This document shows, piece after piece, positions 45,200 to 63,770 of a DNA stretch of 64,000 nucleotides (positions are counted from its first letter, which is position 1; each line of letters begins with the position of its first letter). Both the position numbers and the translations under genes were made by a program. Under the pieces are notes generated by a model, which saw only the letters and a list, made by a program, of their open reading frames with translations, made no database searches and had not been told where the DNA came from. Source of the DNA: Kutzneria kofuensis (GTDB taxonomy: Bacteria > Actinomycetota > Actinomycetes > Mycobacteriales > Pseudonocardiaceae); NCBI RefSeq assembly GCF_014203355.1, contig NZ_JACHIR010000001.1, forward strand, positions 7,814,038 to 7,878,037, written 5' to 3'.

Positions 45200-45236
45200 T
45201 GCGGTTGTCCGGTTCAGGACAGTGAACAGCCCACTG

Positions 45237-46238
45237 TCATCCGGCGGTACTTTCCCTGATCGCCAGCGTGAACGGGGTCTGGATGTCCTCGGGCTCGAAC
45301 TCGCCGTCGGCTTCGATGCGGCGGCGGGCCAGATCCACGGCCGTCCGGGCGATGGCCAGCTTGTCGGGGGCGACGCTGGTGAGCGAGGGGCGGCTGTAAG
45401 CGCCTTCCTCGGTGTTGTCGAAGCCGACGACGGCGATGTCCTGCGGCACGCGAAGGCCCCGCTCGGCGATGGTGCGCAGCGCGCCGACGGCGAGGAGGTC
45501 GTTGAAGCAGAACACGGCGTCCGGTGGTTCGGGTAGGTCGAGCAGGTCGGCCATGGCCGAGGCGCCGTTCTGGCGGTGGTAGTGCAGAGCAGGCCGGACC
45601 AGTTCGGGCGGCTGCGGCAGGCCCGCCGCCGTGAGGGCCTCGCGGTAGCCGGCCAGACGGAGCGCCGCCGTCCCGCGATACGGGTGCTCGCCGATCGCGG
45701 CGATCCGCCGGCGGCCGATCTCCACCAGGTGCCCGACGGCGGTGCGGGCGGCCAGCACGTTGTCGATGGCGACGTGGTCGATGCGCACGTCCACCGAGTG
45801 CTCGCCGATCATCACCAGCGGCACGCCGGGGTCCAGGTCGGCGAAGTCCGAGGCGTGCAGCGCCTCCGGGCTGATCACGGCGGCGTCGATCAGATGCGGC
45901 CCGAGGGCGGCCAGCACCGCCCGCTCCCCGTCCCGGCTGGCCTGGGTCTGCTCGATCAGCACGTTCCAGCCCTGCTCCCGGCCGGCGGTGATGACCAGGC
46001 CGGCCAGCTCGCCGAAGTACGGAATGCCCAGCTCCGGCAGCACCAGCGCGATGAAGCCGGTGCGCCCGCGGCGCAGGTTGCGGGCGCCGATGTTGGGGCG
46101 GTAGCCGGTCGCGGCCAGCGCCTCCTCGACCCGCCTGCGGTTCTCCGGCTTGACGAACGAGTAGCCGTTGACCACGTTGGACGCGGTCTTGATCGACACG
46201 CCGGCCAGGCGCGCCACGTCCCTCAGCGTCACGGCCAT
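45237..46238 (-). CDS. LacI family transcriptional regulator
   Basis: The 333-residue protein has the N-terminal LacI HTH (VTLRDVARLAGVSIKTASNV, about 3-22), a hinge helix (RPNIGARNLRRGRTG) and a periplasmic-binding-like sugar domain with FCFNDLLAVGALR and VVGFDNTEEG. It should bind a pentose or arabino-oligosaccharide and repress the adjacent GH54 gene. ATG 46238 lacks a close ribosome site: AGGAGGAG is 17 bases away. A small dyad CGAGT/ACTCG (46276-46288) upstream of it could be an autoregulatory site or part of the divergent promoter. Confidence 0.92.
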   Translation of the reverse strand: MAVTLRDVARLAGVSIKTASNVVNGYSFVKPENRRRVEEALAATGYRPNIGARNLRRGRTGFIALVLPELGIPYFGELAGLVITAGREQGWNVLIEQTQASRDGERAVLAALGPHLIDAAVISPEALHASDFADLDPGVPLVMIGEHSVDVRIDHVAIDNVLAARTAVGHLVEIGRRRIAAIGEHPYRGTAALRLAGYREALTAAGLPQPPELVRPALHYHRQNGASAMADLLDLPEPPDAVFCFNDLLAVGALRTIAERGLRVPQDIAVVGFDNTEEGAYSRPSLTSVAPDKLAIARTAVDLARRRIEADGEFEPEDIQTPFTLAIRESTAG

Positions 46239-46364
46239 GCGTCGACGATAGCGCGGCTCCTCCTTACGGTTGATTCGAGTGCGACTCGGGTAGGAGGAAT
46301 TCCGAGCCGAGAACCGACTCATGGCCGGTGTGCCGCGGCGGCCCGGCGAACCAGCATCACGGGA

Positions 46365-48087: not shown

Positions 48088-48140
48088 CGCACGTGAGTGG
48101 CTCACTTGGTCCCTGCGGCCAAGTGAGCCACTCACGTGCG
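48088..48140. terminator. 22-bp perfect hairpin after the peptidase gene
   Basis: Positions 48088-48109 pair perfectly with 48119-48140 around a 9-nt loop; the arm begins CGCACGTGAGTGG. It is much longer than a normal terminator stem and has no T-run. The AGTGAGCCACTCAC core looks like a dispersed intergenic repeat of actinomycetes, which is a recollection and not checked. Confidence 0.7.
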
Positions 48141-48239
48141 CGGCCGAGGGGGCATGCCCGCCACGCCCGGGAAATCCGACTTGCCGGGCCGGGCCGCCGC
48201 CGTGCAGGATCTCCGCGCCGCCAAGTAGGAAGGGCCCGG

Positions 48240-49097
48240 ATGCGCTTCTCCGTCAACCTCCCCAACTTCGGCGACTTCGCCGACGCCCGGACCGTCGCGC
48301 GGGTGGCCGTCGCGGCGGAGCAGGCCGGCTGGGACGGGCTGTTCGTCTGGGACCACGTCGTGCACGACAAGGACCGGCGTCGCGGCGTGCCCTTCGGGGA
48401 CCCGTGGATGCTGCTCACCGCCGCCGCCCTGGCGACGTCCCGGATCCGGCTCGGCACGCTCGTGACCCCCGTGGCCCGGCGGCGGCCGGAGCAGCTCGCC
48501 CGCCAGGTCGCCACCCTCGATTCCGTCAGCGGCGGCCGGGTGATCTTCGGCGCCGGCCTCGGCGGCCCGATCGAGGACGAGTTCGGCAGTTTCGGCGAAC
48601 CCACCGACCCCGCCGTGCTCGCGGAGCGCCTCGACGAGGGCTTGGACCTGCTGCGACGCTATTGGTCCGGTGAGCCCGTGACCCACGCCGGCCGGCACTT
48701 CCAGGTCCGGGACGTCACCCTGCTCCCCGCCACCGTGCAACGCCCGCGTCCACCGGTCTGGATCGGCGGCTTCTGGCCGGCCCGCCGCCCCGTGCGCCGC
48801 GCCGCCCGCTGGGACGGCGTCGTCCCGCTGTTCGACACCGCCCGGCACGGCGAGATTCCACCCGTCGACCAGGTCCGCGACCTCGTCGCCTACGTCCGCC
48901 GGCACCGCTCGGACGACTCCCCGTTCGACATCGTCCTCGGCGGCGCCACCGATCCCGCCACCGCCCGGGACGTGCTCGCGCCGCTGGCCGAGGCCGGCGC
49001 CACCTGGTGGGACGAACGCCAACTCCAGACCAGCGCCGACATCGACCGCCTCGAGCCGGTGCTGCGGCGCATCGACGCGGGGCCGCCTACGCCGTGA
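48240..49097 (+). CDS. LLM-class flavin/F420-dependent oxidoreductase
   Basis: The 285-residue protein has the luciferase-like TIM barrel: SVNLPNFGDFADA, EQAGWDGLFVWDH (about 28-40), IRLGTLVTPVARRRPEQLA and SGGRVIFGAGLG. The last is the cofactor loop seen in F420- or FMN-dependent members. Substrate is unknown. ATG 48240 follows GGAAGG by eight bases. Its last 11 bases overlap the end of the convergent MFS gene, so there is no terminator between them. Confidence 0.9.
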   Translation: MRFSVNLPNFGDFADARTVARVAVAAEQAGWDGLFVWDHVVHDKDRRRGVPFGDPWMLLTAAALATSRIRLGTLVTPVARRRPEQLARQVATLDSVSGGRVIFGAGLGGPIEDEFGSFGEPTDPAVLAERLDEGLDLLRRYWSGEPVTHAGRHFQVRDVTLLPATVQRPRPPVWIGGFWPARRPVRRAARWDGVVPLFDTARHGEIPPVDQVRDLVAYVRRHRSDDSPFDIVLGGATDPATARDVLAPLAEAGATWWDERQLQTSADIDRLEPVLRRIDAGPPTP

Positions 49098-50274
49098 CGG
49101 GCTGGCGGCGCCGGGCGCGGGCCGTGATGAACGTGACGGCGGTGCAGCAGGCGGCGAGGCCGAGCCAGACGGTGGGGGCGCTGCCGGTGAGGGCGAGGGC
49201 GACGCCGATCGAGGGCCCGGCGAAGTTGCCGATGCCCATCATGGAGTTGACGAGGGCGTTGGCTCGGGTGAGATCCCGGTCGGGGACGAGGGAGATCAGC
49301 CAGGGGTGGAACGACGCCGAGTAGGCGCACTCGCCGAGGGCGAAAAGGACGGCGTAGGCGAGGAGGCCGGCCAGGCGGAGCGGGTAGGGGCCGAAGGAGA
49401 CGACGCCGGCGATGAGGTAGGCGGCGACCCAGAGCAGCATGGCGCAGCGGAGACCGAACAACTCCGGGCGTTTCTCCAGGAGGCGGGTGACAAGGCCCTG
49501 CGCGAAGGCGATGACGCCGACGTCGACCATGAGCAGCAGGGAGACGGTGGACAGACCCATCGCCATGAGGTTGACGGAAACGAGCGGGGCGGTGGCCTCG
49601 AACTGGCTGAGCCCGAAGAGGTAGACGGCGAGCTGGAAGGCGGCGGCGGACAGGGTGATCCGCCACAGCTGGCCGACCGGCGTCGCGTCCGACCGTTCCC
49701 GATCCGACGACGCAGCGGGAAGATGCTTGCGTACGGCCAGGATGGCGACGGTGACGGGCAGCATGCCGACGGCGTTGGCCAGGAACAGGTAAGGGATCAC
49801 GGTGCGGGGCAGGGCGAGCGTGAGCCCGGCGGCGACGAGGGAGCCCAGCGCGAGCGTGGCGTTGAGGACGGCGTAGCGCCGGGCGAAGACCCGGCGCCGT
49901 TCCTCCGCGGTGACGAGCGAGTTGACGATGGGGATGATCGCGGCGAGGAAACTGCCCTGCCCGACGCCGATGGCCAGGCCGGCGGCGACCACCGCCGGAT
50001 AGGACCCGGCGAGGTAGAGGCCGAGGTAGCCGACGAACCACAGCAGCGTCCCGAGCACCCCGAGCGGCACGCCGCGAAGGCGCAGAATCCCCGTGCTCAG
50101 CAGCAAGGCGGTGGCGAGGTTGGCGCCGCCGGTGCACGCGTAGAACACGGCCACGCCGGGCGTTCCCACGCCCGGCATGTCCGACAGGTAGATCGCGGTG
50201 TACGGAAACACCAGGCCCAGACAGAACGACGACAGGCCGTGGGTGGCGATGAGGCCGTTGACCGGCTTAGGCAC
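49087..50274 (-). CDS. MFS transporter, probable product exporter
   Basis: The 395-residue protein has about 12 hydrophobic spans and the MFS loop with acidic and basic residues after span 2 (LRLRGVPLG). A second-half repeat (ALGECAYSASFHPWLISL) is also seen. The GTG start (50274) overlaps the end of the ATP-grasp gene by eight bases, so it is part of the biosynthetic operon, most likely as exporter or self-resistance pump for the product. Confidence 0.88.
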   Translation of the reverse strand: MPKPVNGLIATHGLSSFCLGLVFPYTAIYLSDMPGVGTPGVAVFYACTGGANLATALLLSTGILRLRGVPLGVLGTLLWFVGYLGLYLAGSYPAVVAAGLAIGVGQGSFLAAIIPIVNSLVTAEERRRVFARRYAVLNATLALGSLVAAGLTLALPRTVIPYLFLANAVGMLPVTVAILAVRKHLPAASSDRERSDATPVGQLWRITLSAAAFQLAVYLFGLSQFEATAPLVSVNLMAMGLSTVSLLLMVDVGVIAFAQGLVTRLLEKRPELFGLRCAMLLWVAAYLIAGVVSFGPYPLRLAGLLAYAVLFALGECAYSASFHPWLISLVPDRDLTRANALVNSMMGIGNFAGPSIGVALALTGSAPTVWLGLAACCTAVTFITARARRRQPVTA

Positions 50275-51475
50275 CGCTGACCTCGCTGACGACCAGCGGC
50301 ACGGCGGTGTCCAGGACAGCCCGGCATCCGTCCTCGTCCCCGGCGACCGCGACGAGCGCCGCCAGCCGCGGAATCGCTTGCCGGGGCGGCAGGAGCAGCG
50401 TCGAGCCGGTCTCGGCCAGCACCGCCACGTGCTCGATGCCGGGCACGTCGGCGGCCGCGCGAAGGTCGATGCGGTGCACAACGGCGTCGTAGGGCGGGTA
50501 GACGAACCGCACCTCGGCGGCGCGGTCGTGCACGGGCGTCAGATCGGGCTCACGGCCGAGCGCGAGTTCCGCGGCGGCGACGACCAGGTCGATGCCGGTG
50601 GCCAGGAATCCCGCGTACGGAATGAGATCCCCGCCGAGCCGGCCGTTGAGCTCCACCAGCCGCGGCCCGGCCGCGGTGAGCCGAAGCTCGGCATGGGTGA
50701 CGCCGAGTTCGACGCCGAGCGCGCGATGCGCGTTGACCACCAGGTCCCGCACGGCGTCGGCCCACGGCTCGGACGTCCAGCCGGTGAGCAGGTGCCCGAC
50801 CTCCTCGAAGTGCGGCTCGAAGCCCAGCCGCTTGCGGGCGACGTGCACGCAGGTGACGGCGCCGTCGGACACCACGCTGTCGACGCTGATCTCCGGCCCG
50901 TCGAGGTACTCCTCCACCAGCACCCCGTGCCCGTTGGGCAGCGTCGCGAACGCCGCGCCGGTGGCGAGGCCGAACGCGTCCCACACCTCCCCGGCGTCGT
51001 TGGCGAGCACGACGCCGACGCTGCCGGCGAGCGCACGGGGCTTGACCACGACCGGGAATCCCAGCCCCTCGGCGATCGACACCGCTTCGTTGGCGCTGTG
51101 TGCGAGGCCGTACCGCACGGCGGGCAGGCCGGCGGCGTCGAGCAACGTCCGCGTCGTGTACTTGTCACGGCAGCGAGCCGCCGACTCCGCGGACATGTGT
51201 CGCAGCGACAGCTTCTCCGCGGCCCGGGCGGTGCTCTTCAGCACCGTCTCGTCCCACGTGAGCACGCCGGAATCCGGGCCCGCCAACGAACGCAGGGCGT
51301 CCACTACGGCGGCGTCGTCGGCGAAGTCGACGACGCGCCAGTCGTCCAGGTAGAGCCGCTGCCACGTCGGCTCCGCGGGCAGCAGGGCGGACAGCCGGTA
51401 CCGCGGCGCCAACGACGTGAACGCGTACTCGCGGTAGGGCCGGCCGCCGCTGCCGACCACGATCAGATGGTCCAT
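50267..51475 (-). CDS. ATP-grasp ligase
   Basis: The 402-residue protein has an ATP-grasp core: VVVKPRALAGSVGVV (about 140-155, ATP-binding Lys), VEEYLDGPEISVDSVV (about 182) and VELNGRLGGDLIP (about 275, Mg-binding Glu/Asn). It resembles BacD-type L-amino acid ligases and other carboxylate-amine ligases that activate a carboxylate as acyl phosphate. It would form an amide bond in the cluster product. ATG 51475 is five bases after the stop of the flavin reductase gene, and the next gene (exporter) overlaps its end. Confidence 0.9.
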   Translation of the reverse strand: MDHLIVVGSGGRPYREYAFTSLAPRYRLSALLPAEPTWQRLYLDDWRVVDFADDAAVVDALRSLAGPDSGVLTWDETVLKSTARAAEKLSLRHMSAESAARCRDKYTTRTLLDAAGLPAVRYGLAHSANEAVSIAEGLGFPVVVKPRALAGSVGVVLANDAGEVWDAFGLATGAAFATLPNGHGVLVEEYLDGPEISVDSVVSDGAVTCVHVARKRLGFEPHFEEVGHLLTGWTSEPWADAVRDLVVNAHRALGVELGVTHAELRLTAAGPRLVELNGRLGGDLIPYAGFLATGIDLVVAAAELALGREPDLTPVHDRAAEVRFVYPPYDAVVHRIDLRAAADVPGIEHVAVLAETGSTLLLPPRQAIPRLAALVAVAGDEDGCRAVLDTAVPLVVSEVSGA

Positions 51476-51480
51476 CGGTC

Positions 51481-52056
51481 TCACCCGGCGGCCTTGGCGC
51501 GCAACGGTTCCAGCGCCTCGGCGACGCTGTGCAGCTCGTCGAGCATGCCCTCGGCCGAGGAGGCCATCGCGTCGGTGCCGGTGAAGTTGCCGTCGGCGTC
51601 GATGTGCTGGCCGATGAAGTGGATGGCGACGCACTCCGGCACCGGCACCATCTTCAGCGTGGTGACGACCTGCTTGGTCATCTGCGCGGCCCGCAGGCCG
51701 GCGGAGGTGTTGCCGTAGCTGACGATGCCGACCGGCTTGTACTGCCACTCGAAGTACAGGTAGTCGATGGCGTTCTTGAGCGCCGCGTTGATCGAGTAGT
51801 TGTACTCGGGGGCGACGAACACGAACGCGTCGGCCGCGTCGACGATCGCGCTCCAGTCCTTGGTGTGCTGCTTGGTGTAGTTGCGCTCGGACGGGTGGTT
51901 GGGCTCGTCGAGCAGCGGCAGGCCGACCTCGGCCAGGTCGACCAGGCGGATCTCGAACCGGCCGTGCTTCTCGGCGATCTTCGTGAACCACTCGGCGACG
52001 GCGGGGCCGGAGCGGCCGGGCCGGGTGCTGGCGATGATCACGTTCAGGCGGGGCAT
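51481..52056 (-). CDS. NADPH-dependent FMN reductase family protein
   Basis: The 191-residue flavodoxin-like protein has the FMN phosphate loop ASTRPGRSGPAVAEW and the APEYNYSINAALKNAIDYL motif typical of this family. It reduces FMN or quinones with NAD(P)H. ATG 52056 is preferred to TTG 52077 because AAAGG sits nine bases before it. It may provide reduced flavin to other enzymes of the cluster. Confidence 0.9.
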   Translation of the reverse strand: MPRLNVIIASTRPGRSGPAVAEWFTKIAEKHGRFEIRLVDLAEVGLPLLDEPNHPSERNYTKQHTKDWSAIVDAADAFVFVAPEYNYSINAALKNAIDYLYFEWQYKPVGIVSYGNTSAGLRAAQMTKQVVTTLKMVPVPECVAIHFIGQHIDADGNFTGTDAMASSAEGMLDELHSVAEALEPLRAKAAG

Positions 52057-52085
52057 GGGGGAAAGCCTTTCGGTCAAAGGGGGAT

Positions 52086-52505
52086 TCAGGCCGGGAGCCA
52101 GCCGTACGAGCGGTCGATGCGGAACCGGACGACGAGCCGGCGGTCGGCGACCATCGCCCGCCGGTAGTCGTCCCAGTCGGGGTGTTCGCCCTGCACGCCG
52201 CGGTAGACCTCGATGAGCTCCTCGACGGCCTGGTCGTGCGGCTCGGCGGCCACCGCGGACAGCTCGGCGACGCCCTCGAAGACCGCGTACGCGCCGCCCT
52301 CGGGGGTGGTTACGTGCAGGCTGACCCGCGGGTCGCGCCGCAGGTTGCGGATCTTCGCGCGGTCCTCCGTGGTCGACAGCCGCACCACCCGGGTGGCCGG
52401 GTCGTAGTCGAAGTCCACGTTGGACAGCTGCGGCCGGCCGTCCCGCTTGAGGGTCACCAGCACTCCCCGGCGGCGCTGGTCGAGCAGGGAGAGGTAGTCC
52501 GACAT
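52086..52505 (-). CDS. PPOX-class F420/FMN-dependent reductase-like protein
   Basis: The 139-residue split-barrel protein (VLVTLKRDGRPQLSNVDF; AKIRNLRRDPRVSLHV; late IDRSYGWLPA) belongs to the pyridoxamine-phosphate-oxidase-like group. Many actinobacterial members of this group use F420 instead of FMN. It is 29 bp upstream of the flavin reductase gene. Its reaction in the cluster is unknown; reducing a double bond or imine would fit. Confidence 0.88.
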   Translation of the reverse strand: MSDYLSLLDQRRRGVLVTLKRDGRPQLSNVDFDYDPATRVVRLSTTEDRAKIRNLRRDPRVSLHVTTPEGGAYAVFEGVAELSAVAAEPHDQAVEELIEVYRGVQGEHPDWDDYRRAMVADRRLVVRFRIDRSYGWLPA

Positions 52506-52531
52506 CTGGGGTTCCCTTCGGTCACGCGGGC

Positions 52532-52555
52532 GTACGGTCCAGTATCTGGAAGTAC
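52532..52555 (-). promoter_or_regulatory. Dyad in the only sizeable gap of the biosynthetic cluster
   Basis: GTAC-2-TCCAG-3-CTGGA-1-GTAC (52532-52555) is a near-perfect nested palindrome in the 92-bp gap between the cyclase and PPOX genes. It is the widest gap among the twelve genes. It may be an internal operator or promoter dividing the cluster into two transcripts. Confidence 0.35.
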
Positions 52556-52597
52556 GGGTCGCCGTCCCGGCGGACTTGACGTTGTCCGCGTCGGATC

Positions 52598-53362
52598 TCA
52601 CGGACGAGTGACGAGCGCGAGCACCCTGGTCGGGCTGCCCGAGCCGCCGACGATCGGCAGCGGCGAGGCGACGACCACCGCGCCGGTCGGCGGCAGCAGC
52701 GCGAGGTTGCGCAGCTGGGTGAGGCCGTACTTGCCGGCGCCGTGCAGGAACCAGTGGCACGGGAACGGCTGCTCGAACTCGCCGGCCAGCCCGGCGTCGG
52801 TGCCGACGGTCTCCACGCCGAGGCCGATCACCGGGGTCTCCTCGGCGATCCACCGCGCGCAGTCCTCGGCCACGCCGGGGGTGTGCCGGCCGTTGATGAA
52901 CGCCTGCGGGTCGGCGCCCCGGGCGTCCCAGCCGGTCCGGTACAGCAGCCAGCCGCCGTCGGGCAGCGGGCCGTGCTCGGCGATCCACGCCTCGATGTGT
53001 TCCCGCCGCAGCAGGAAGTCCGGGTCCCGGGCGACATCCTCGGACAGGTCGATCACCGCTGCCGGAGCGACGAGCCGTTGGGGCGGCACCTGCGAGACGT
53101 CCTGGGTGTTCTTGCCGGACAGCCAGTGCGACGGCGCGTCGAAGTGCGTGCCGGTGTGCTCGGAGAGCCGGATGTTGTTCCAGTAGACGGTCGGTCCCGC
53201 GGCGTCGAAGTCGCTGATCACCTCGCGGGAGAACGGCCACGGCTGGCCGCGGTCCGGCGGCAGGTCGATGATCGGCGTCTGCTCGGACAGCGGCGCGGTC
53301 AGGTCGATCACTTCGACCGCGCCGGAGGTCAAGGCCGTGATCAGGTCGGTGAGCACGGTCAT
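52598..53362 (-). CDS. Cyclase family protein, kynurenine formamidase-like
   Basis: The 254-residue protein has the metal-binding signature of the cyclase/KynB family, SEHTGTHFDAPSHWLSG (about 67-83). Later motifs are VIDLSEDV, LLYRTGW and GVETVGTDAG. KynB members hydrolyse N-formylkynurenine to kynurenine; others are polyketide or isatin hydrolases. With tryptophan 2,3-dioxygenase in the same operon, formamidase is the natural reading. The ATG overlaps the aminotransferase stop by four bases (ATGA). Confidence 0.88.
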   Translation of the reverse strand: MTVLTDLITALTSGAVEVIDLTAPLSEQTPIIDLPPDRGQPWPFSREVISDFDAAGPTVYWNNIRLSEHTGTHFDAPSHWLSGKNTQDVSQVPPQRLVAPAAVIDLSEDVARDPDFLLRREHIEAWIAEHGPLPDGGWLLYRTGWDARGADPQAFINGRHTPGVAEDCARWIAEETPVIGLGVETVGTDAGLAGEFEQPFPCHWFLHGAGKYGLTQLRNLALLPPTGAVVVASPLPIVGGSGSPTRVLALVTRP

Positions 53363-54297
53363 GCCGTCACCTCCTCGCGGGCCGGGGCGATCGGCGTGCA
53401 CCACTCGGGGTGGTCGCCGCGGGCGCGGACCGCGTCGTCGTAATGGCTCTGCAGGGCGGCGGTGAGCGGGCCGCGTTTGCCGTCGCCCACCGGGTTGCGG
53501 TCCACGCTCGTGACCGGCAGCAGCTCGGCCAGCGTGCCGCACAGGAAGATCTCGTCGGCGACGTAGAGCTCCGTGCGGTCGATCTCCCGCCGCCGCAACG
53601 GAATGCCGAGCTTCTCCTCGGCCAGGCGGGCCACCGTGGCGACGGTGATGCCCTCCAGCACGCCGCTCGTGCCGGGCGGCGTGACGAGCTCGCCGTCGCG
53701 AACCATCACCACGCACGATCCCGGCGCCTCCGCCACCGTGCCGCGCTGGTTGAGCAGCAACGTGGTGTCGTACCCGTTGCGGACGGCTTCGTGCTGGGCC
53801 AGCCGGCTGTTGTGGTAGTTCGCCCCGGTCTTGATCCGCGGCGGCATCGAGTCGTCGCTGATCCGCCGCCACGAGGCGATGCTCGCCGCGGCGCCGGTCT
53901 CGTGCTTGGCCGAGCGCGGCATCGGGATCGCGGTGATGTGCACGCCGGTGGAGGTGGTGTACGCCAGCGGGTCGAAGTTCGGCCCCTCGTCGAAGTACGC
54001 CACCACGCAGATGTGTGTGTCGGTGTTGAAACCGTTGGCCTGCACCACATCCAGGCAGGCCTGCTTGAGCTCGGCGTCGCTGTGCCCGATCTCCAGGTGC
54101 AGACTCTTCATCGAGCGCCGCAGCCGGGCCAGGTGGTCGTCCACGCGGAACGCGTGCATGGTCTCCGGGCCGGCGTAGGCGCGGATCCCCTCGAAGACGT
54201 TCGCGCCCCAGAACGCGCCCTGGCTGCGGGCGTGCACGACGCAGTCGTCCCACCGGACCAGACGGCCGTTCTGCCAGGCGTAATCGGGCGCGGTCAT
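53359..54297 (-). CDS. Class IV PLP aminotransferase (branched-chain type)
   Basis: The 312-residue protein has the class IV fold of IlvE, D-amino acid aminotransferase and PabC: GANVFEGIRAY, PLP Lys in RIKTGANYHNS (about 157), RGTVAEAPGSCVVMV and the ELYVADEIFLCGT phosphate loop. It matches branched-chain amino acid aminotransferases in length. In the cluster it may supply or convert an amino acid building block. The start overlaps the stop of the hydroxylase gene (ATGA). Confidence 0.92.
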   Translation of the reverse strand: MTAPDYAWQNGRLVRWDDCVVHARSQGAFWGANVFEGIRAYAGPETMHAFRVDDHLARLRRSMKSLHLEIGHSDAELKQACLDVVQANGFNTDTHICVVAYFDEGPNFDPLAYTTSTGVHITAIPMPRSAKHETGAAASIASWRRISDDSMPPRIKTGANYHNSRLAQHEAVRNGYDTTLLLNQRGTVAEAPGSCVVMVRDGELVTPPGTSGVLEGITVATVARLAEEKLGIPLRRREIDRTELYVADEIFLCGTLAELLPVTSVDRNPVGDGKRGPLTAALQSHYDDAVRARGDHPEWCTPIAPAREEVTA

Positions 54298-55901
54298 GCG
54301 CTGGTTCCCTTCACGAGAGTGCGGTCCAAGGCGCCGACGCCGGCAGCGGTGCGCAGCGCGGCGGCGAAGTCGTTGCCGTCGCTACCCCGGGCGGCGAGAT
54401 GGCCGTCCGGTCGTACGACCCACCAGGTGCCGCCGACCGTGCCATATCGGGCGAGCAACTCGGTGTCCTCGGAGCGGACGACCCGGGCACCGTTCGGCAC
54501 GCCCTCGGCCGGCGCTCCCTCGGGCAGCACGACCACCATGTCGCACTCGGTGGAACGAGCCTGGTCGAGGAGTTCGGCGGCGCGGGTGCCGGTGGTGGCG
54601 AAGCACAGCACGACGAAGCGGTGCCCGAACAAACGCCGCAGCCGGGAAGGCTCGCCGTCGATCCGCATGTCCGGCGCGAACGAACCCAGCAGCGGGTCGT
54701 CGCCGGCGGGTTGCACGATGGGCGATTCGGTGTAGACGTACGGCTCGGCCATCCGGCCGCTGTTGACGTGCTTGCGGGCCAGGCCGAGGGAGCGCGACAG
54801 CCCCAGCAACGCCGCCCGGGTCCAGCGGCGGATCCGGTTGGGCGGCACCATGAACCGGATGGTCGCCTCGGTGACGCGCAGGTTCTCCCGCGCCGCGGCG
54901 TACCGCTCGATGTGATACGTCTCCAGCAGCTCCTCGCCGGCTTGTCCATTGTGGATGGCGGCGAGCTTCCACGCGAGGTTGTCGGCGTCCTGGATGCCGC
55001 TGTTCATGCCCCGGGAACCGTACGGCGGCAGGGAATGCGCGGCGTCGCCGGCGAACAACACCCGGCCGACCCGCAGCCGGGCCACGACCCGCTGGTGGAA
55101 CCGGTAGGTGCTGACCCAGTCGATCTCGTACGGGATGTCGCCGATGACGGCCCGCACCCGCTGGTCGAACCGGCCGTCCAGTTGCTCCGCCTCGATGTCG
55201 GCGTCCGGCGGCAGCTGCCAGTCGATGCGCCAGATGTCGTTGGGCTGCGGGTGCATCACCAGCTGCCGGCCCGGGTTGAACGACGGGTCGTAGTGGAAGT
55301 GCCGTTCCTTGGCCAGCGGCAGCTTCGCCTTGATGTCCGTGATCAGGAACCGGTCCTTGTGCGTGTAGCCGGTCCACTCGACGTCCATCAGCTCGCGCAT
55401 CTTGCTGCGGACGCCGTCGGCGGCGACGAGGTGGGCGAACCGCAGGTCCTGCTCACCCTCGGCGGTGTTCACCCGGACCGTCACGCTGTCGGCGTCCTGG
55501 GTCACGGCCATCACCTCGTGGCCCCAGCGCAGGTCGCAGAGCGGGTTGGCCTCGGCCGCCTCGACCAGCACCTGCTCGATGCGGAACTGGGAGATGTTCA
55601 CGAACGGGCCGAAGCCCAGCCCGCGCGGGTACTCGGCGGAGCGGATCACCCGGTTGCGGACGTAGGTCCGCGCCACGGTCCACGTCACGCCCTCGTCCCG
55701 GATCGGCTCGGCGCAGCCGAACTTGTCCAGCACCTCCAGCACGTCGCCCTGGATCAGGCACGCCTTGGAGCCCTGCTTGAGCAGCTCGGGCTTGGCCTCC
55801 AGCAGCACGGTCGGCACGCCGAGCCCGGCCAGCCGCAGCGCCGCGACCAGGCCGACCGGCCCGGCGCCGACGATGCCCACGGGAGCGTCGAATGCGGTCA
55901 T
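54294..55901 (-). CDS. FAD-dependent aromatic hydroxylase
   Basis: The 535-residue class A flavoprotein monooxygenase has the dinucleotide motif VGIVGAGPVGLVAAL (about 8-22) and the LVAADGVRSKMRELM substrate/DG motif. A GDAAHSLPPYGSRGMNSG FAD motif (about 282) and a C-terminal thioredoxin-like domain (VLCFATTG to WWVVRPDGHLAARG) follow, as in MhpA, phenol hydroxylase and PgaE-type enzymes. It hydroxylates an aromatic ring with NAD(P)H and O2. Ring hydroxylation of kynurenine or anthranilate is the likely step. The ATG overlaps the stop of the upstream dioxygenase-like gene. Confidence 0.92.
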   Translation of the reverse strand: MTAFDAPVGIVGAGPVGLVAALRLAGLGVPTVLLEAKPELLKQGSKACLIQGDVLEVLDKFGCAEPIRDEGVTWTVARTYVRNRVIRSAEYPRGLGFGPFVNISQFRIEQVLVEAAEANPLCDLRWGHEVMAVTQDADSVTVRVNTAEGEQDLRFAHLVAADGVRSKMRELMDVEWTGYTHKDRFLITDIKAKLPLAKERHFHYDPSFNPGRQLVMHPQPNDIWRIDWQLPPDADIEAEQLDGRFDQRVRAVIGDIPYEIDWVSTYRFHQRVVARLRVGRVLFAGDAAHSLPPYGSRGMNSGIQDADNLAWKLAAIHNGQAGEELLETYHIERYAAARENLRVTEATIRFMVPPNRIRRWTRAALLGLSRSLGLARKHVNSGRMAEPYVYTESPIVQPAGDDPLLGSFAPDMRIDGEPSRLRRLFGHRFVVLCFATTGTRAAELLDQARSTECDMVVVLPEGAPAEGVPNGARVVRSEDTELLARYGTVGGTWWVVRPDGHLAARGSDGNDFAAALRTAAGVGALDRTLVKGTSA

Positions 55902-57151
55902 CGGGTCCTCGCAGTCTCGTCGGTCTCCTCGCCGGCGACGTCCACGGCGTGGAAGACGGGGATGGTGCGCACCGCCTTGAGATAGGGCGTGCCCTCGGTG
56001 TAGCCGGTGCCGGTGGCCTCGCCGAGCATCCGCACGGCCAGCCGGTAGTGGGTGTTGCGCCAGCGCAGCAGGGCGCGGGCGAAGCCCTTCATGCCCTCGG
56101 CGATGCGCTCGCGGTCGTGTTCGCTGACGGCGCCGGACTCGCGCAGCTCGCGGTAGGCGTCGTCGAGGGTGTGCTGGCCGGCCAGCACGCGGTCGCGCAC
56201 GTCGGGGGCTGAGTGGAAGGCGGGGGAGTCCACGCGCTCGGCATCGGGTTGCCGGCAGAGCGACTCGACGAGCTTGTAGTTGCGGGACTGGATCGCGCTC
56301 GCGCCCTCGGTGAACTGGCGGAAGGTGCGGAACGACTCGATCTGCATGGTCGCGAGCATCGAGAACAGCGGCGCGGACTCCCGCAGCGCGTTCTCCGCGG
56401 TGGCCAGGAAATGCACCGCGCGGTCGGCCTCGCCCTGAGCGAGTGCGGCGGTGACTCCGCGCAGCAGCACCGCCAGCAGGGCGAAGACCGTCTCGAACGT
56501 CTGCAGCACGCGCAGGAACATGTACTCGTCGTGCGCGGTGTAGACCGGCAGCACGCTCAGCTCCAGGGCGCGTTCCTCGCTGAACGACATGTCGGCCCGC
56601 ACCACCGAGCACACCTGCCGCGCCAGCTCCAACGGCTCGGTGGCGGTGAGGCCGCCGTCGAGCGACATGCGGGCCAGCACGGGCCGGATCACCCGTAGGC
56701 CGTGCTTGCAGCGCTTGACGACCAGGTCCGGGTCGGGCCGCATGGCCGGCAGCAGGGCCGTCGCGCCCTCCACGGCGGCGATCTCGAACCCCAGCGCGTC
56801 GGCGACGAGCTGCGCGATCAGCCGGTCGCAGCGGGACCGCGCGAACGGCGCCTGCTCCACCGGATCGTCCACAGTGGGCAGTTGCAGCAGCGACAACGCC
56901 AGGTAGGTCGGGTAGTCGTACCGGCCGTCCGGCTTGTCCAGCGCGGTGTCCAGGAACGACGCGAGGGTCTGGACGTGCTCCCACGGGCCGCGCATGGACG
57001 GCAGCCGGTCGCGGACGTCGGCCAGCACGGACAGCAGCTCGGGGTGGACGAAGTGCTTGCCGACCCGCTGGTAGTGGCGGACGACGGCGGCGTAGGGGAA
57101 CTTCTTGGGATCGGATTCGTGGAGCCAGGTGCGTAACTCAGCCGTGGACAT
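55898..57151 (-). CDS. Heme dioxygenase-like protein of the tryptophan 2,3-dioxygenase superfamily
   Basis: This 417-residue all-helical protein resembles tryptophan/indoleamine dioxygenases only in key segments. One is FRQFTEGASAIQSRNYKLVE (about 278-297), matching the substrate Arg and the QSxxYR region. The other is RNTHYRLAVRMLG then GTGYTEGTPYLK (about 363-391), matching the heme-ligand His, Arg and Gly/Thr-rich carboxylate loop. It is longer and more divergent than the true TDO three kb upstream. Relatives such as PrnB, MarE and other TDO-like proteins catalyse unusual oxidations of tryptophan derivatives, so it probably performs a second oxidation. The stop overlaps the next start (ATGA). 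Confidence 0.75.
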   Translation of the reverse strand: MSTAELRTWLHESDPKKFPYAAVVRHYQRVGKHFVHPELLSVLADVRDRLPSMRGPWEHVQTLASFLDTALDKPDGRYDYPTYLALSLLQLPTVDDPVEQAPFARSRCDRLIAQLVADALGFEIAAVEGATALLPAMRPDPDLVVKRCKHGLRVIRPVLARMSLDGGLTATEPLELARQVCSVVRADMSFSEERALELSVLPVYTAHDEYMFLRVLQTFETVFALLAVLLRGVTAALAQGEADRAVHFLATAENALRESAPLFSMLATMQIESFRTFRQFTEGASAIQSRNYKLVESLCRQPDAERVDSPAFHSAPDVRDRVLAGQHTLDDAYRELRESGAVSEHDRERIAEGMKGFARALLRWRNTHYRLAVRMLGEATGTGYTEGTPYLKAVRTIPVFHAVDVAGEETDETARTR

Positions 57152-57156
57152 GGGAT

Positions 57157-58245
57157 CTACCGCTCGATTCGGGAAAGTGCCGCGCAGAGCGCGTCGATGT
57201 CTTCGGTGGTGCTGTAGTGGTGGAACGACAGCCGCACGACGTCGCCGCGGGGGCTGACCGCGATGCCGTGCGCCGCCAACCGCTTGGCCAGGCCGATGGG
57301 ATCGGGGTCGACCAGTCCGATGTGCGCGCCGCGGCGTTCGCGCGGCAGCGCGTGGACCTGCCTGCCCTGCGCGGTCAGAAGGTCGATGGCGAGGTCGGTG
57401 AGGCCGAGGATGTGGTCGCGGACGGCGGCGAGGTCGGTCCGGGCGATCAGCCGCAGTCCCGCGTTGGCCGTGTAGGCGGCGGGCACCGACGGCGTGCCGG
57501 TCTCGAACCTTGTTGCCGTGGCGGCGAAGTCGAGGGTGCGTGGGTCGAAGGCGAACGGGTCGACCCGGCCGAACCAGCCGGTCAGTCGCGGGTCACGGTC
57601 GGTCCGAGCGGGCGAACGCACGTAGAGGAAGGCCAGGCCGGGCAGGCCCAGCAGGTACTTCATGGTACCGGCGACGAGGTAGTCACAGCCGAGCCGGTCG
57701 ACGTCGACCGGCTCGGTGCCGATGGCCTGGTAGGCGTCGACGAACACCTCGGCGCCGGCGTCGTGCGCGCGCCGGGCGATGTCGGCGACGGGCAGCCGCT
57801 CGCCGTACTGGTACCCGGTCATCGGCACCGACACGAGCCGCGTGGCCTGGTCGATCTCGCCGCCGTACACGACCTCCGCGCCGCGAGGGCGTTGCGCCAG
57901 CCAGACGTGCGCGACGGACGGGAACTCCAGGTCGGTGGTGACGATCTTCGGCCGCCGACCGAAGTCCATCGTGGATGCGACCTGATAGGCGCCGACGGAT
58001 GCGTTGGGCACCACCGCGATCTGTTCGACCCGAGCGCCGACGAGTGCCGCGAAGCCTTGCCGGGCCTGGTGCAGCTGGTCCTCGAAGCGGTCCCACGGCG
58101 CGCCGCCGTCGGCCATGTCGTCGAGCATCAGCCGCAGTGCGTCGTCGAGATCGAGCGACCGCGCGCCGAGACTGCAACTCGCCAGGTGAACCCTGTTGCC
58201 CAGCATGGGAAAGCGGGCACGGAAGGCGGCGGGGGAGAGGTTCAC
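57157..58245 (-). CDS. Class V PLP enzyme, kynureninase/cysteine desulfurase-like
   Basis: The 362-residue fold-type I PLP enzyme has NASVGAYQV (phosphate loop), the Asp of FVDAYQAIGTEPVD (about 193) and the Schiff-base Lys in VAGTMKYLLGLPG (about 216). It resembles kynureninase and isopenicillin-N-epimerase-like proteins. Between a dioxygenase and a formamidase-like enzyme, kynureninase (giving anthranilate and alanine) is the best guess, though another C-C or C-S cleavage is possible. The GTG start (58245) overlaps the TDO stop by four bases (GTGA). Confidence 0.88.
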   Translation of the reverse strand: MNLSPAAFRARFPMLGNRVHLASCSLGARSLDLDDALRLMLDDMADGGAPWDRFEDQLHQARQGFAALVGARVEQIAVVPNASVGAYQVASTMDFGRRPKIVTTDLEFPSVAHVWLAQRPRGAEVVYGGEIDQATRLVSVPMTGYQYGERLPVADIARRAHDAGAEVFVDAYQAIGTEPVDVDRLGCDYLVAGTMKYLLGLPGLAFLYVRSPARTDRDPRLTGWFGRVDPFAFDPRTLDFAATATRFETGTPSVPAAYTANAGLRLIARTDLAAVRDHILGLTDLAIDLLTAQGRQVHALPRERRGAHIGLVDPDPIGLAKRLAAHGIAVSPRGDVVRLSFHHYSTTEDIDALCAALSRIER

Positions 58246-58979
58246 GACGACGTCCCCAGGTGGTACTGGCCCATCGGGCCGGTCTCGGTCAGCTCGGTGC
58301 GCAGCCGCCACAGCTCGGGGAAGAAGCGGTCCTCGATGAGCCGGGCCAGCGTGTCGGTGTGCGTGCCCTGGGTGCCGATGACCTCGTTGCCGATGACCCG
58401 GGTGAGCATCTTGTAGTGGCGCACCCGCCACAGCGACACCCGCTCGTCGAACTCGATCAACGCCTCGGCCAGCCGGTGCTCGGGGCCGTGCACGCGGCTG
58501 CGGTACTGCTCGGCGAGGTCGACACCCTCGGTCTCGACGTACTCCCGGAACACGCGGCCGAGCACAGCGCCCTGGCGGTGGATGGAGCGCCAGCCGGGGG
58601 AGTCCGCGCCCGAGCCGTGCCCGAGCACGGTCCGCATGGTCTGGAAGTCCCACGGCGACAGGTGGTGCATCATCTCCAGCTGCTCGGTCACCAGCACCAT
58701 GCCCAGCGACGCCCGGTTGAGCAGCGCGATCGCGGCGTCGAAGTCGCGGGCACGGACCCGGTCGGTCGCCTCGACGAGCTCGGAGTGCGCGAGCTTGAGC
58801 CACAGCTCGGTGGACTGGTGCACGATCTGGAACAGCAGCTCGTCGCGGTGCACGACCTCCTCGGGCCTGCGCTGCAACGACAGCAGCGTCCCGGTGTGCA
58901 TGTAGCGCTCGTAGTCGTTGCCGCCCTCGCCGTCGAGGATCTGCTCCGAGTAGTCGCGCAGGACCTGGTCGTTCTTCAC
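58242..58979 (-). CDS. Tryptophan 2,3-dioxygenase
   Basis: The 245-residue protein has the hallmark TDO segments: YMHTGTLLSLQRRPEE, HRDELLFQIVHQSTELW (substrate pocket and distal His) and WRVRHYKMLTRVIGNEVIGT with the proximal heme His (about 205). It opens the indole ring of tryptophan to N-formylkynurenine with O2. It is short for the family (about 280 usual), and the usual GTGGSSG loop is replaced by GTQGTHT, a form I associate with biosynthetic TDOs. GTG 58979 overlaps the ATP-grasp stop by four bases (GTGA). Confidence 0.93.
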   Translation of the reverse strand: MKNDQVLRDYSEQILDGEGGNDYERYMHTGTLLSLQRRPEEVVHRDELLFQIVHQSTELWLKLAHSELVEATDRVRARDFDAAIALLNRASLGMVLVTEQLEMMHHLSPWDFQTMRTVLGHGSGADSPGWRSIHRQGAVLGRVFREYVETEGVDLAEQYRSRVHGPEHRLAEALIEFDERVSLWRVRHYKMLTRVIGNEVIGTQGTHTDTLARLIEDRFFPELWRLRTELTETGPMGQYHLGTSS

Positions 58980-60211
58980 CGCGCACCCACCCGCTCGACC
59001 GGCTCCGCGCTGACCCGGAAGCCCCTGGCCGTCTCCTCCAACGCCTTCTCCACCTCGGCACTGGTCGCACCGCGGAAGCGGAACCGGCCGCCGACGTGCT
59101 CGTAGTAGGCGTCCGCCTCGGGCAGCACCTCGCCGACACCGAGCAGCGCCTCCGCGTACGGTCCCGGCGTCGCGCCGACCATCGACGTCACCTCGGTGAT
59201 CCGGCACGGGCGCGCGGCGGGCGCCGGGATCAGCAGCCAGCCGCCGACCTCGCCGCTGGCGACCGCCGGGGGTTGCTGCGGCTCACGGCCCAGTTGCAGG
59301 TCGAAGGCGGCCCGCATGAGGTCGTAGCCGTGCAGGTCGCGCCAGATGAACGGGATCTCCGAGCCGCCGGCGCGGGCGCCGACCTCCAGGAAGGTGCAGG
59401 TCTCGCCGTCGAAGAAGACTTCGAGGTGCAGCGGGGTCGGCTGGTCGGTGAGGGCGCGGAGGAAGTCGGTGGCGGCGGCGCGTACGGCGTCGATGACCGC
59501 CGGATCGTCCACCTCGACCGAGCCGAGGAAGCTGCCGGTGCGGAAGCCCAGGCAGGTGTTGACGTACCGGGAGACCTTCAGGCACGCCATCTCGGCGCCG
59601 GTGAACACGCCGTCGACGTGGTGGATCGGGTGCGGGTTGAACGCCTGGACGAGCATCGGCTCGTCGGTGAGCGCGATCCCGGCCGGACCGTCGACCACCA
59701 CCACACCGGCGCTGGAGCTGCCGATACGCGGCTTGAGCACGACCGGCCAGCCGTGTTCGCCGGCGAAGTCGAGCACCGACTGCGGCCCGGTGACCTCGGC
59801 GAAGGCGGGGACGGGCAGCCCGGCGGCCTCGATCGCCCGGCCCATCAGGAACTTGTCGCGGAACCGGAGCAGGTCGGCCGGCCGGTGGCCGGGCACGTCC
59901 CACTCCTCGCGCAGCTGGGCCCCGACCAGCAGGTCGTCCTCCTTCAGCGCGACGATGCGGTGCGGCTCGCCGTGGCGGCGCACGAGCTCGGCCAGCGCGG
60001 CGCGGGCCTGGGGCAGGTCGTCGGTGGCGTCGACGAGAACGGTGTCGGTCGCGGCGGCGGGAACCGAGCCGAGGCCGACCTCCGTGCTGATGTAGGTGAC
60101 GCGATGCGTCGAATGGTCGAGATAGCGGTGGTAATCGGCGTAGTGCTCACGCCATCGGTTGATGACGACGACGTGCGGGCGCGCGTCATCGCCCCCCGTT
60201 GGTCTGTTCAT
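58976..60211 (-). CDS. ATP-grasp ligase, second in the cluster
   Basis: The 411-residue protein has the ATP-grasp fold: DKFLMGRAIEAAGLPVPAF (lead-in), VVLKPRIGSSSAGVVVV (about 163) and LEVFFDGETCTFLEVGARAGG (about 285; Mg-binding Glu/Arg in the LEVGARAGG part). It is not closely similar to the ligase at 50267. Carboxylate-amine ligation in the biosynthetic pathway is likely. The ATG has only a weak GGAA site. It is the second gene of the operon, 22 bp after the first. Confidence 0.9.
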   Translation of the reverse strand: MNRPTGGDDARPHVVVINRWREHYADYHRYLDHSTHRVTYISTEVGLGSVPAAATDTVLVDATDDLPQARAALAELVRRHGEPHRIVALKEDDLLVGAQLREEWDVPGHRPADLLRFRDKFLMGRAIEAAGLPVPAFAEVTGPQSVLDFAGEHGWPVVLKPRIGSSSAGVVVVDGPAGIALTDEPMLVQAFNPHPIHHVDGVFTGAEMACLKVSRYVNTCLGFRTGSFLGSVEVDDPAVIDAVRAAATDFLRALTDQPTPLHLEVFFDGETCTFLEVGARAGGSEIPFIWRDLHGYDLMRAAFDLQLGREPQQPPAVASGEVGGWLLIPAPAARPCRITEVTSMVGATPGPYAEALLGVGEVLPEADAYYEHVGGRFRFRGATSAEVEKALEETARGFRVSAEPVERVGAR

Positions 60212-60233
60212 TTCACGTTCCGTTCGGAAAAGT

Positions 60234-61541
60234 TCAGCTGGTGGTGAAAACACACGTGCCGCGGGTGCCGGAGTTCGAGTACGAAACCACCGACCCGTCG
60301 GCGGGCTTGAGTGCGCGTACGAATCCGCCGGCATATCCCGCGGAATCGACGAATATCCCCCAGTTCGCCACCCATTCCTCGATGGCGTTCGTCTCCGCGT
60401 TCAGCACCGGCTCGGTCCTCGGCCGAACCCGGCGCTGCACGACGTGGTCGCCGGTCCGGCGCTCGGCCAGGGCCCGCTCCCACTCCTCGTCGGTGACGGC
60501 GTGCCCGACCACGGTGCCGACGCCGCCGTAGCCGACGCCCGGCTTGAGCACGAGATTCCGGCGCTCGTCCCGGCAGTGCCGGAACAGCGCGTCCTGGCCG
60601 TCCTCGGCGCCGAGCAGCCGGGTCCACGGCACGACACGGTCGACAACCGCGTGCTCCTCGGCGGAGAAGGTCGCGCGGACGGCCGGGTCGTGCAGCATCG
60701 CGAGGCTGCCCTTGCTCGCGTACACGCCGCCCTCCAGCGGCGTGAAGAGCACCGTCTCGGGGGCTTCGATCAACAGGTCCAGCTTCTGCTGGGCGGTCGG
60801 GTCGTCGACGAGCTCGCCGGCGACGAAGTAGCGCAGCACGACGTCGAGTGGCGTGCCCCGCAGCGTGATCTTGCCGTTCTGTTCGTCGAGCTCGTGGATC
60901 TCGCCCAACAGCAGGTCGATGCCCTGGTCGCGCAGCGCTTCCCGGAGCGCGAGGAACACATGCTCGTGGGCGGCGAGGCCGTCGGTGCTCTCGATCAGCG
61001 CCACCACCGGCTCGTCGACCAGGGCCGCCTGCCGCAGCGCGGCGGCGACACGGGGGATCGTGTCGACGTGGCCGAGCTCGTGCCGCTGGGCGAAGTCGGC
61101 GAACTCGGGTCGGGCCAGGAACGCGCGGTTGAGCTGCGCGGTGTCCAGGCCGCCGAGCTCGCTGCCGACGTTGAGTTCCAGCAGCTTGAACGACGTGCCG
61201 TCGTGGTAGGCGTCGGCCCGGGCGTACAGCGGCGGCGCGCCGGTGGCGCCGCGGCACATCAGCGCGGCCAGCCGGTCGTCCATGCCGAGCGCGGCGCAGT
61301 AGCGGCGGAGGTCGCCGTCGAACAGGCGGCCGGGCAGGGAGACGAGGATGTCGAAGACGGCGGCGAGGTCGGCGGCGAATGCGGTGATCTCCGCTTCCGG
61401 CACGAACAGCGGCCGGTCGAGCTGGAGATTTCCGTACGAGGCCGCATAGGTCTCGGGAAGTCGGAGTTCACGCGCGGCGTGACGGAGCGGTCTCGAATTG
61501 GCGGATTCGGCAAGGTACTGCTTGGTGACGACGTTCGGCAC
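60234..61541 (-). CDS. ATP-grasp-like synthetase, glutathionylspermidine-synthase type
   Basis: The roughly 435-residue protein has LLELNVGSELGG (about 122; acidic metal-site-like motif) and LVLKPGVGYGGVGTVVG (about 338; Gly-rich ATP-grasp-like loop after a Lys). The order is reversed relative to normal ATP-grasp proteins, as in circularly permuted glutathionylspermidine-synthase-like enzymes. It would make an amide bond. It is the promoter-proximal gene of the twelve. GTG 61541 is chosen for a GGGGG site eight bases away; TTG 61550 is an alternative. The family call is moderate because no exact homologue is recognised. Confidence 0.7.
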   Translation of the reverse strand: MPNVVTKQYLAESANSRPLRHAARELRLPETYAASYGNLQLDRPLFVPEAEITAFAADLAAVFDILVSLPGRLFDGDLRRYCAALGMDDRLAALMCRGATGAPPLYARADAYHDGTSFKLLELNVGSELGGLDTAQLNRAFLARPEFADFAQRHELGHVDTIPRVAAALRQAALVDEPVVALIESTDGLAAHEHVFLALREALRDQGIDLLLGEIHELDEQNGKITLRGTPLDVVLRYFVAGELVDDPTAQQKLDLLIEAPETVLFTPLEGGVYASKGSLAMLHDPAVRATFSAEEHAVVDRVVPWTRLLGAEDGQDALFRHCRDERRNLVLKPGVGYGGVGTVVGHAVTDEEWERALAERRTGDHVVQRRVRPRTEPVLNAETNAIEEWVANWGIFVDSAGYAGGFVRALKPADGSVVSYSNSGTRGTCVFTTS

Positions 61542-63754: not shown

Positions 63755-63770
63755 GCAGGGACACCCTCCT

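What the first reader, a model, noticed from the sequence alone, without database searches (positions are those of the whole stretch)
49087..61541. Candidate undescribed biosynthetic gene cluster joining kynurenine chemistry to three ATP-grasp ligases
Twelve minus-strand genes, most with 1-8 bp start/stop overlaps, encode TDO, a TDO-like protein, kynureninase-like and formamidase-like enzymes, an aromatic hydroxylase, a class IV aminotransferase, two flavin-type redox proteins, three ATP-grasp-type ligases and an exporter. Established: TDO, formamidase, kynureninase and hydroxylase gene sets supply (hydroxy)anthranilate in pyrrolobenzodiazepine and actinomycin-type pathways. Unlike those, there is no NRPS or PKS here, so amide bonds must come from the ATP-grasp enzymes. 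I do not recognise a known cluster with this composition.
Basis: partly seen in the sequence, partly recalled or inferred. Interest (0 to 1): 0.85.

Follow-up and report, generated by a model that had tools for sequence, protein, structure and literature searches.

The report
Mansouramycin-type gene cluster lacking methyltransferase
This is a set of twelve bacterial genes that very probably turns the amino acid tryptophan into a quinone natural product of the already reported mansouramycin type, here without the gene thought to add a methyl group, and it carries a heme enzyme of unknown activity that recurs in several other gene clusters.

Summary
The twelve-gene minus-strand operon at 49087-61541 is real and its order is conserved: 10 places (window plus 9 others, at least three actinomycete families) carry g1-g8, g11 and g12 in the same order. 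It is probably not undescribed. The orthologous operon of Streptomyces albidoflavus ends in an ATP-grasp gene overlapping an MFS gene; none of 6 other ATP-grasp hits checked there (of 8) has that. This matches the published XNR_4443-XNR_4444 pair beside the mansouramycin D cluster (PMC12892944), which makes a C7 aminoquinone carboxamide from tryptophan and escapes antiSMASH (PMC12690601). The primary papers were not held and the J1074 sequence was not seen, so the link is strong inference. The window lacks the methyltransferase found in 7 of the 10 operons, and its genome shows no ortholog; I predict an N-desmethyl product. One part stays open: g5, a TDO-like heme protein, keeps the heme His and carboxylate Arg but has Leu for the catalytic His in 48 of 48 sequences; a short TDO lies beside it in 41 of 49 places, across several cluster types. 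It may oxidise kynurenine rather than tryptophan.

The parts
60234..61541 (-). g1: 435 aa, circularly permuted ATP-grasp-like protein (glutathionylspermidine synthase-like, weak); first gene of the operon
   Evidence: PF14403 16.6 bits (cut-off 32); 3n6x E 0.054; profile found no ATP-grasp in the PDB; AF2 model unusable, pLDDT 40; orthologs in the other 9 full operons
58976..60211 (-). g2: 411 aa, ATP-grasp, L-amino acid ligase-like
   Evidence: below Pfam cut-offs; profile A4 hits L-amino acid ligase 4wd3 E 1.2e-15
58242..58979 (-). g3: 245 aa, short tryptophan 2,3-dioxygenase, with the catalytic His (xcTDO H55) and heme His (H240)
   Evidence: PF03301 79.3 bits, cut-off 34.9; His in 52 of 52 family members at both sites
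57157..58245 (-). g4: 362 aa, kynureninase-like class V PLP enzyme; lysine K196, aligned with the lysine of the kynureninase KYL-G-PG motif, invariant in 11 of 11 aligned
   Evidence: 1qz9 kynureninase E 2e-26, profile E 2.1e-37; TIGR01814 58.7 bits, below cut-off 246.4; alignment A3
55898..57151 (-). g5: 417 aa, TDO-like heme protein; C-terminal TDO-like domain plus about 180 N-terminal, mostly helical residues; Leu in place of the catalytic His
54294..55901 (-). g6: 535 aa, FAD-dependent aromatic-ring hydroxylase
   Evidence: PF01494 229.9 bits; PRK08132 543 bits, cut-off 416
53359..54297 (-). g7: 312 aa, class IV aminotransferase (ilvE-like)
   Evidence: PF01063 156.8 bits; TIGR01122 253.4 bits, cut-off 245.55
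52598..53362 (-). g8: 254 aa, PF04199 cyclase-fold hydrolase, probable kynurenine formamidase
   Evidence: PF04199 137.8 bits; arylformamidase TIGR03035 32.7 bits, below cut-off 223
52506..52597 (.). 92-bp gap where 7 of 10 operons carry a SAM methyltransferase gene (about 230 aa); absent here
   Evidence: own genome holds only partial matches of 23-37% identity
52086..52505 (-). g9: 139 aa, pyridoxamine 5'-phosphate oxidase-like flavin/F420-type reductase
   Evidence: PF01243 46.7 bits
51481..52077 (-). g10: NADPH-dependent FMN reductase (198 aa, or 191 aa from ATG 52056)
   Evidence: PF03358 130.7 bits
50267..51475 (-). g11: 402 aa, ATP-grasp amino acid ligase; proposed counterpart of XNR_4443
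   Evidence: PF13535 63.4 bits, cut-off 27; 67% identity to the S. albidoflavus ortholog
49087..50274 (-). g12: 395 aa, MFS exporter; proposed counterpart of XNR_4444
   Evidence: PF07690 75.5 bits; 68% identity to the S. albidoflavus ortholog

Best explanation
A mansouramycin-type (isoquinolinequinone) biosynthetic operon in a Pseudonocardiaceae genome close to Kutzneria, lacking the usual methyltransferase. Proposed route: TDO (g3) opens the indole of tryptophan to N-formylkynurenine; the cyclase-fold hydrolase (g8) removes the formyl group; the heme protein g5 and the FAD hydroxylase g6 add ring oxygens; the kynureninase-like g4 cuts off alanine and leaves a C7 hydroxyanthranilate; g7, g9 and g10 set the amino and quinone/hydroquinone state; ATP-grasp-type enzymes (g2, perhaps g1) turn the carboxyl into a carboxamide or amide; g11 helps join the C7 unit to a second amine-bearing piece; g12 exports the product. 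Without the methyltransferase the ring nitrogen should stay unmethylated. Reported by others for S. albidoflavus: tryptophan origin, C7 precursor, about 50% loss of mansouramycin D without XNR_4443. Shown here: conserved operon, missing methyltransferase. The enzyme-by-step assignment is inferred.
For: Ten operons with g1-g8, g11 and g12 in the same order, including S. albidoflavus NRRL B-1271 (L015) with all twelve genes at 62-80% identity each. A search of that genome with g11 gave 9 hits: the ortholog and 8 others. Of the 8, five were read with their surroundings and g2 is inside the operon; none of these 6 is followed by an MFS gene, whereas the g11 ortholog overlaps a 10-TM MFS gene by 4 bp (two hits in one frame of contig C13 were not looked at). 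Literature: XNR_4443 (ATP-grasp) and XNR_4444 (MFS) are a bicistron beside the mansouramycin D cluster, and deletion of XNR_4443 cuts mansouramycin D by about 50% (PMC12892944, passages). The cluster uses Trp, makes 5-(methylamino)-3,6-dioxocyclohexa-1,4-diene-1-carboxamide and was not annotated by antiSMASH (PMC12690601, sections 4 and 7). The gene set fits: TDO, formamidase fold, kynureninase fold, hydroxylase, flavin reductases, and a methyltransferase in most operons. The other two TDO places of S. albidoflavus lie elsewhere, one beside a g4-like (kynureninase-type) gene.
Against: The gene lists of the primary papers (Shuai 2022, Chai 2021) were not held and the J1074 sequence was not seen, so identity with the published cluster rests on a conspecific strain and the ATP-grasp/MFS pair. 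The window lacks the methyltransferase implied by the methylamino group. g4, g8 and g3 fall below the curated cut-offs for kynureninase, arylformamidase and TDO equivalogs, and g1 and g2 below Pfam ATP-grasp cut-offs. PMC12892944 and PMC12690601 name the C7 partner differently, a pyridine carboxamide against a quinone carboxamide.
Confidence: 0.82

Rival explanations
1. An undescribed pathway to a kynurenine- or anthranilate-containing peptide-like amide, put together by three ATP-grasp ligases.
For: ATP-grasp-type genes and no NRPS or PKS in the operon; the g2 profile matches an L-amino acid ligase, and g11 carries a weak LAL_C2 match (25.5 bits, cut-off 29.4).
Against: The orthologous operon in S. 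albidoflavus matches the published neighbourhood of mansouramycin D, whose C7 unit is a quinone carboxamide.
Confidence: 0.1
2. Same C7 aminoquinone carboxamide chemistry, but the window's strain joins it to a different partner, so that the final product is not an isoquinolinequinone.
For: PMC12690601 reports that the late steps are flexible and unknown (malevonin, mansevorone). Core genes g3-g6 and g8 occur without g2 and g12 in other settings (L012, L079, L109, L110; L011 beside PKS-type genes).
Against: g1, g2, g11 and g12 are all kept in the window in the order seen in S. albidoflavus.
Confidence: 0.2
3. g5 is not an enzyme acting on its own substrate but a partner subunit of g3, the two forming a mixed TDO.
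For: A g3-type TDO lies beside g5 in 41 of 49 places, duplicates counted once; g5 has lost the distal His in 48 of 48; in the TDO homolog MarE residues of a neighbouring subunit line the pocket (PMC11904535, passages).
Against: g5 keeps the heme His, the carboxylate Arg and the F51 counterpart in 48 of 48. g3-type TDOs occur without g5 in 9 fetched loci, L116-L118, L120-L124 and L126; a tenth, L125, is cut by a contig end.
Confidence: 0.2
4. A tryptophan catabolic operon with an exporter, not secondary metabolism.
For: TDO, formamidase-fold and kynureninase-fold genes are present.
Against: The own genome has two other TDO loci; ligases, redox enzymes and a class IV aminotransferase are not expected in catabolism (general knowledge); g5 relatives occur in 23 of 397 genomes of the order and 9 of 394 of the class sample.
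Confidence: 0.03

Closest known systems
Mansouramycin D cluster of Streptomyces albidoflavus J1074 (XNR_4443-XNR_4444 and adjacent genes)
   Same: Seen through the conspecific strain NRRL B-1271 (L015): all twelve genes present in the same order, ATP-grasp/MFS pair at the end, tryptophan-derived chemistry (PMC12892944, PMC12690601)
   Different: No methyltransferase between g8 and g9 in the window; proteins 62-80% identical; product not known in the window's strain
Operon of Kutzneria sp. 744 (L009)
   Same: Same twelve genes, same flanks (GH30, luciferase-like), no methyltransferase; 82-95% identity
   Different: One extra gene called between GH30 and g1 in L009
Tryptophan 2,3-dioxygenase / MarE / PrnB / IDO heme oxygenases
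   Same: g5 keeps the fold of the heme domain and the heme His, F51 and R117 counterparts
   Different: Leu replaces the His that bonds the indole N-H; about 180 N-terminal residues that the TDO alignments do not cover but the PrnB and IDO alignments do
Actinomycin, sibiromycin and other pyrrolobenzodiazepine kynurenine modules (recalled, from no call)
   Same: TDO, formamidase, kynureninase, hydroxylase and methyltransferase supply an anthranilate unit
   Different: There NRPSs build the amides; none lies in this operon

Membership tests
Mansouramycin-type cluster | ATP-grasp ligase and MFS gene as a pair beside Trp-related genes | tested here: met
   g11/g12 overlap 8 bp in the window, 4 bp in S. 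albidoflavus; not seen at the 6 other ATP-grasp hits checked there, of 8
Mansouramycin-type cluster | genes for a Trp-to-C7 route (TDO, formamidase fold, kynureninase fold, ring hydroxylase) | tested here: met
Mansouramycin-type cluster | methyltransferase for the methylamino group | tested here: not met
   absent from the operon; only 23-37% partial matches in the own genome; so filed as a variant of the type, not as a mansouramycin cluster proper
Mansouramycin-type cluster | gene-by-gene identity with the J1074 locus | tested here: inconclusive
   primary gene lists not held, J1074 not seen; the conspecific NRRL B-1271 matches all twelve
Mansouramycin-type cluster | production of an isoquinolinequinone | not testable with these tools
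   needs culture and LC-MS
Tryptophan 2,3-dioxygenase (g3) | PF03301 over cut-off with catalytic and heme His | tested here: met
   79.3 against 34.9 bits; both His 52 of 52; 119.9 bits on TIGR03036, below its equivalog cut-off 390.7
Tryptophan 2,3-dioxygenase (g5) | catalytic His at xcTDO position 55 | tested here: not met
   Leu in 48 of 48
Kynureninase (g4) | curated kynureninase model TIGR01814 | tested here: not met
   58.7 bits, cut-off 246.4; nearest solved structure by sequence is kynureninase
Arylformamidase (g8) | curated model TIGR03035 | tested here: not met
   32.7 bits, cut-off 223; PF04199 met
ATP-grasp (g11) | Pfam ATP-grasp model over cut-off | tested here: met
   PF13535 63.4 against 27
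ATP-grasp (g1, g2) | Pfam ATP-grasp model over cut-off | tested here: not met
   16.6/32 and 18.1/23.2 bits; g2 profile matches L-amino acid ligase 4wd3

The most novel reading that the evidence does not exclude
g5 founds an undescribed branch of the heme-dependent aromatic oxygenases: a TDO-type heme domain with an IDO/PrnB-like N-terminal domain, Leu instead of the indole-binding His, acting on kynurenine or N-formylkynurenine instead of tryptophan. Paired with a short TDO it would form a portable module feeding several natural-product pathways (ATP-grasp operons, NRPS clusters, three- and four-gene islands). In the window it would help make an N-desmethyl isoquinolinequinone.
Probability: 0.35. 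Interest if true: 0.65.

Novelty: new variant of a known kind. Interest (0 to 1): 0.45.

Why it matters
It extends a recently reported tryptophan-to-isoquinolinequinone route, which antiSMASH was reported to miss (PMC12690601), to several actinomycete families, predicts an N-desmethyl product, and isolates one conserved heme protein (g5) whose substrate is unknown and directly testable. The 10 operons and their stripped-down relatives show which genes go together: g3-g4-g5 as a small recurring unit, g1-g2-g11 as the ligase part.

Tried and rejected
The AF2 model of g1 had pLDDT 40 and was not used; the g1 profile search of the PDB gave no ATP-grasp. Paper searches joining ATP-grasp with kynurenine, kynureninase or isoquinoline found nothing; the mansouramycin link came from recall of its tryptophan origin, then. 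An idea that g3 and g5 are obligate partners was weakened: g3-type genes occur without g5 in L116-L118, L120-L124 and L126; L125 is cut by a contig end, and L127 holds only a partial g3. A tree of five concatenated proteins could not tell gain from loss of the methyltransferase: the label needs 4 changes, and 159 of 500 shuffles are as low. In one search the comparison column of ordinary TDOs was dropped, because the extraction failed for one own-genome TDO and was doubtful for the other; position 254 is quoted for g5 only, as g3 aligns poorly there. antiSMASH and MIBiG were not available, so their silence is no result. The remaining large genes of the window outside 42128-63994 were not scanned.
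Full report
What is there. The window holds a single-strand operon of twelve genes, g1 (60234-61541) to g12 (49087-50274), between a GH30/ricin-lectin-domain glycosidase gene (61865-63994, minus) and a luciferase-like oxidoreductase gene (48093-49097, plus). Six of 11 junctions overlap by 4 or 8 bp (7 if g11 starts at GTG 51484). The genome is 10.4 Mb; the nearest named relative found for this operon is Kutzneria sp. 744, 82-95% identical per gene with the same two flanking genes. That the host is a Kutzneria or close kin is inference.

How far it is conserved. A scan of the species-level genome collection with g5 gave 11 loci; 7 of the 11 (L009, L010, L013, L014, L015, L018, L019) hold g1-g8, g11 and g12 in the window's order. 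One more full operon came from a sample of 394 genomes of the class (L108) and one from 390 genomes of the family (L140, by gene calls, with g2 called in two pieces), which makes 10 with the window. g9 is missing in L013 and was not called in L140; g10 is missing in L010 and L018. In the family sample 45 of 390 genomes have a g1 relative at E 1e-30 or better, but only 4 (own genome included) reach 59% identity. Of the 7 genomes of the own genus shown there (own included), 2 have the ortholog.

What it is. L015 is Streptomyces albidoflavus, the species of strain J1074. In that genome a search with g11 gave 9 hits, the ortholog and 8 others. Five of the 8 (two of them neighbouring genes) were read with their surroundings and one is g2 inside the operon; none of these 6 is followed by an MFS gene. 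The g11 ortholog is followed by a 10-TM MFS gene with a 4-bp overlap. The last two hits, in one 1105-codon frame, were not looked at further. [quoted passage not shown] PMC12690601 (abstract, sections 4 and 7, passages) states that the cluster uses tryptophan, was not annotated by antiSMASH, leads to the C7 precursor 5-(methylamino)-3,6-dioxocyclohexa-1,4-diene-1-carboxamide, and that the last steps are unknown. The primary papers (Shuai et al. 2022; Chai et al. 2021) were not held; I saw them only as reference entries. The other two TDO places of S. albidoflavus lie elsewhere, one next to a g4-like, kynureninase-type gene. The window's operon is therefore very probably of the mansouramycin type.

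How this copy differs. Seven of the 10 full operons carry a methyltransferase gene of about 230 aa between g8 and g9 or g10 (L010, L014, L015, L018, L019, L108, L140). The cluster copies compared (these without L140, plus L011) are 55-87% identical to each other. The window, L009 and L013 do not have it. The window's genome has only partial matches of 23-37% identity, Kutzneria 744 one of 28%, Actinophytocola (L013) one of 40% at E 1.5e-35 elsewhere in its genome, which might stand in for it there. The window's gap is 92 bp. If this enzyme makes the methylamino group, which is inferred and not read anywhere, the window's product is N-desmethyl. The tree joins window and L009 (100/100) but cannot decide gain or loss.

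Setting of g5. Of 50 places with a g5-type frame, 42 have a g3-type TDO on the same strand within about 2.5 kb; without the duplicate L083 it is 41 of 49. The 8 without are L105-L107 and L111-L115: L106 and L113 lie at contig ends, L105 has an in-frame stop, and identity to g5 is 35-43% except for the truncated L106 (51%); one search gives 47% for L105. The settings are: full ATP-grasp operons; g3-g4-g5-g6-g8 without g2 (L011, L012, L079, L109, L110); the trio g3-g4-g5 (L016, L017, L082, L094-L096, L098, L099, L102); g3-g5-g4-like plus a protein whose L085 copy scores as a methyltransferase (L085-L093, L097, L100, L101); and g3-g5 in NRPS clusters (L080, L081) or without g4 in the stretch (L103, L104; L084 is cut by a contig end). 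The reverse does not hold: L116-L118, L120-L124 and L126 have g3 without g5. Because g5 occurs where no kynureninase-type gene is near, action before the kynureninase step is the simpler reading, though a kynureninase elsewhere in those genomes was not looked for.

Relatives of the ligase part. In four genomes (L141, L142, L145, L146) a g1 homologue (41-44%) stands with two g11-like ATP-grasp genes, a class IV aminotransferase, a PF04199 cyclase and a gene that looks MFS-like by eye, together with anthranilate-synthase-type subunits; no TDO or g4 homologue was matched in those stretches. Only the L141 proteins were scanned against families; the other three share the same gene clusters by similarity. 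This suggests that the ligase part is a module served by different sources of an aminobenzoate; the product is unknown.

What remains inferred. No step of the window's pathway has been tested. The identity of the published cluster with L015 rests on species, gene order and the ATP-grasp/MFS pair. The two papers name the C7 partner differently. The order of hydroxylations, the origin of the ring nitrogen and the roles of g1, g2, g7, g9 and g10 are guesses guided by family.

Noticed in passing
   Followed up: partly
L080 and L081 (Streptomyces sp. NBC_01343 and NBC_01006, linear plasmids): A short TDO and a g5-type protein with a 4-bp overlap inside NRPS clusters with two acyl-CoA-dehydrogenase-type genes and an M20 peptidase gene.
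   Followed up: no
L082, 9422-17679 (Micromonospora zamorensis plasmid): g3-g4-g5 and an MFS gene downstream of nitric oxide synthase oxygenase and globin genes.
   Followed up: no
L012, L109, L110: g7 is absent and a small Rieske-like protein gene stands before g8 (family scan of the L012 copy only, below cut-offs); L012 also has a UvrA/ABC-like ATPase gene right after g8, which in other clusters can mean protection from a DNA-damaging product (recalled)..
   Followed up: partly
L085-L093, L097, L100, L101; also L117, L118, L120, L126: A four-gene set TDO, g5, g4-like, methyltransferase-like protein (c3); the last four loci have it without g5.
   Followed up: partly
L121-L125: Genomes of 1.5-2.4 Mb carry a short g3-type TDO with no g5 found beside it (L125 cut by a contig end).
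   Followed up: no
L079 (NZ_LT559118.1): An 11.85-Mb Nonomuraea gerenzanensis record is listed in the plasmid collection as 'plasmid I'; by size it looks like the chromosome.
   Followed up: no
window 42128-46322: Carbohydrate-degradation genes beside the cluster: chondroitinase-B-like protein, arabinofuranosidase with AbfB domain, LacI-type regulator.
   Followed up: no
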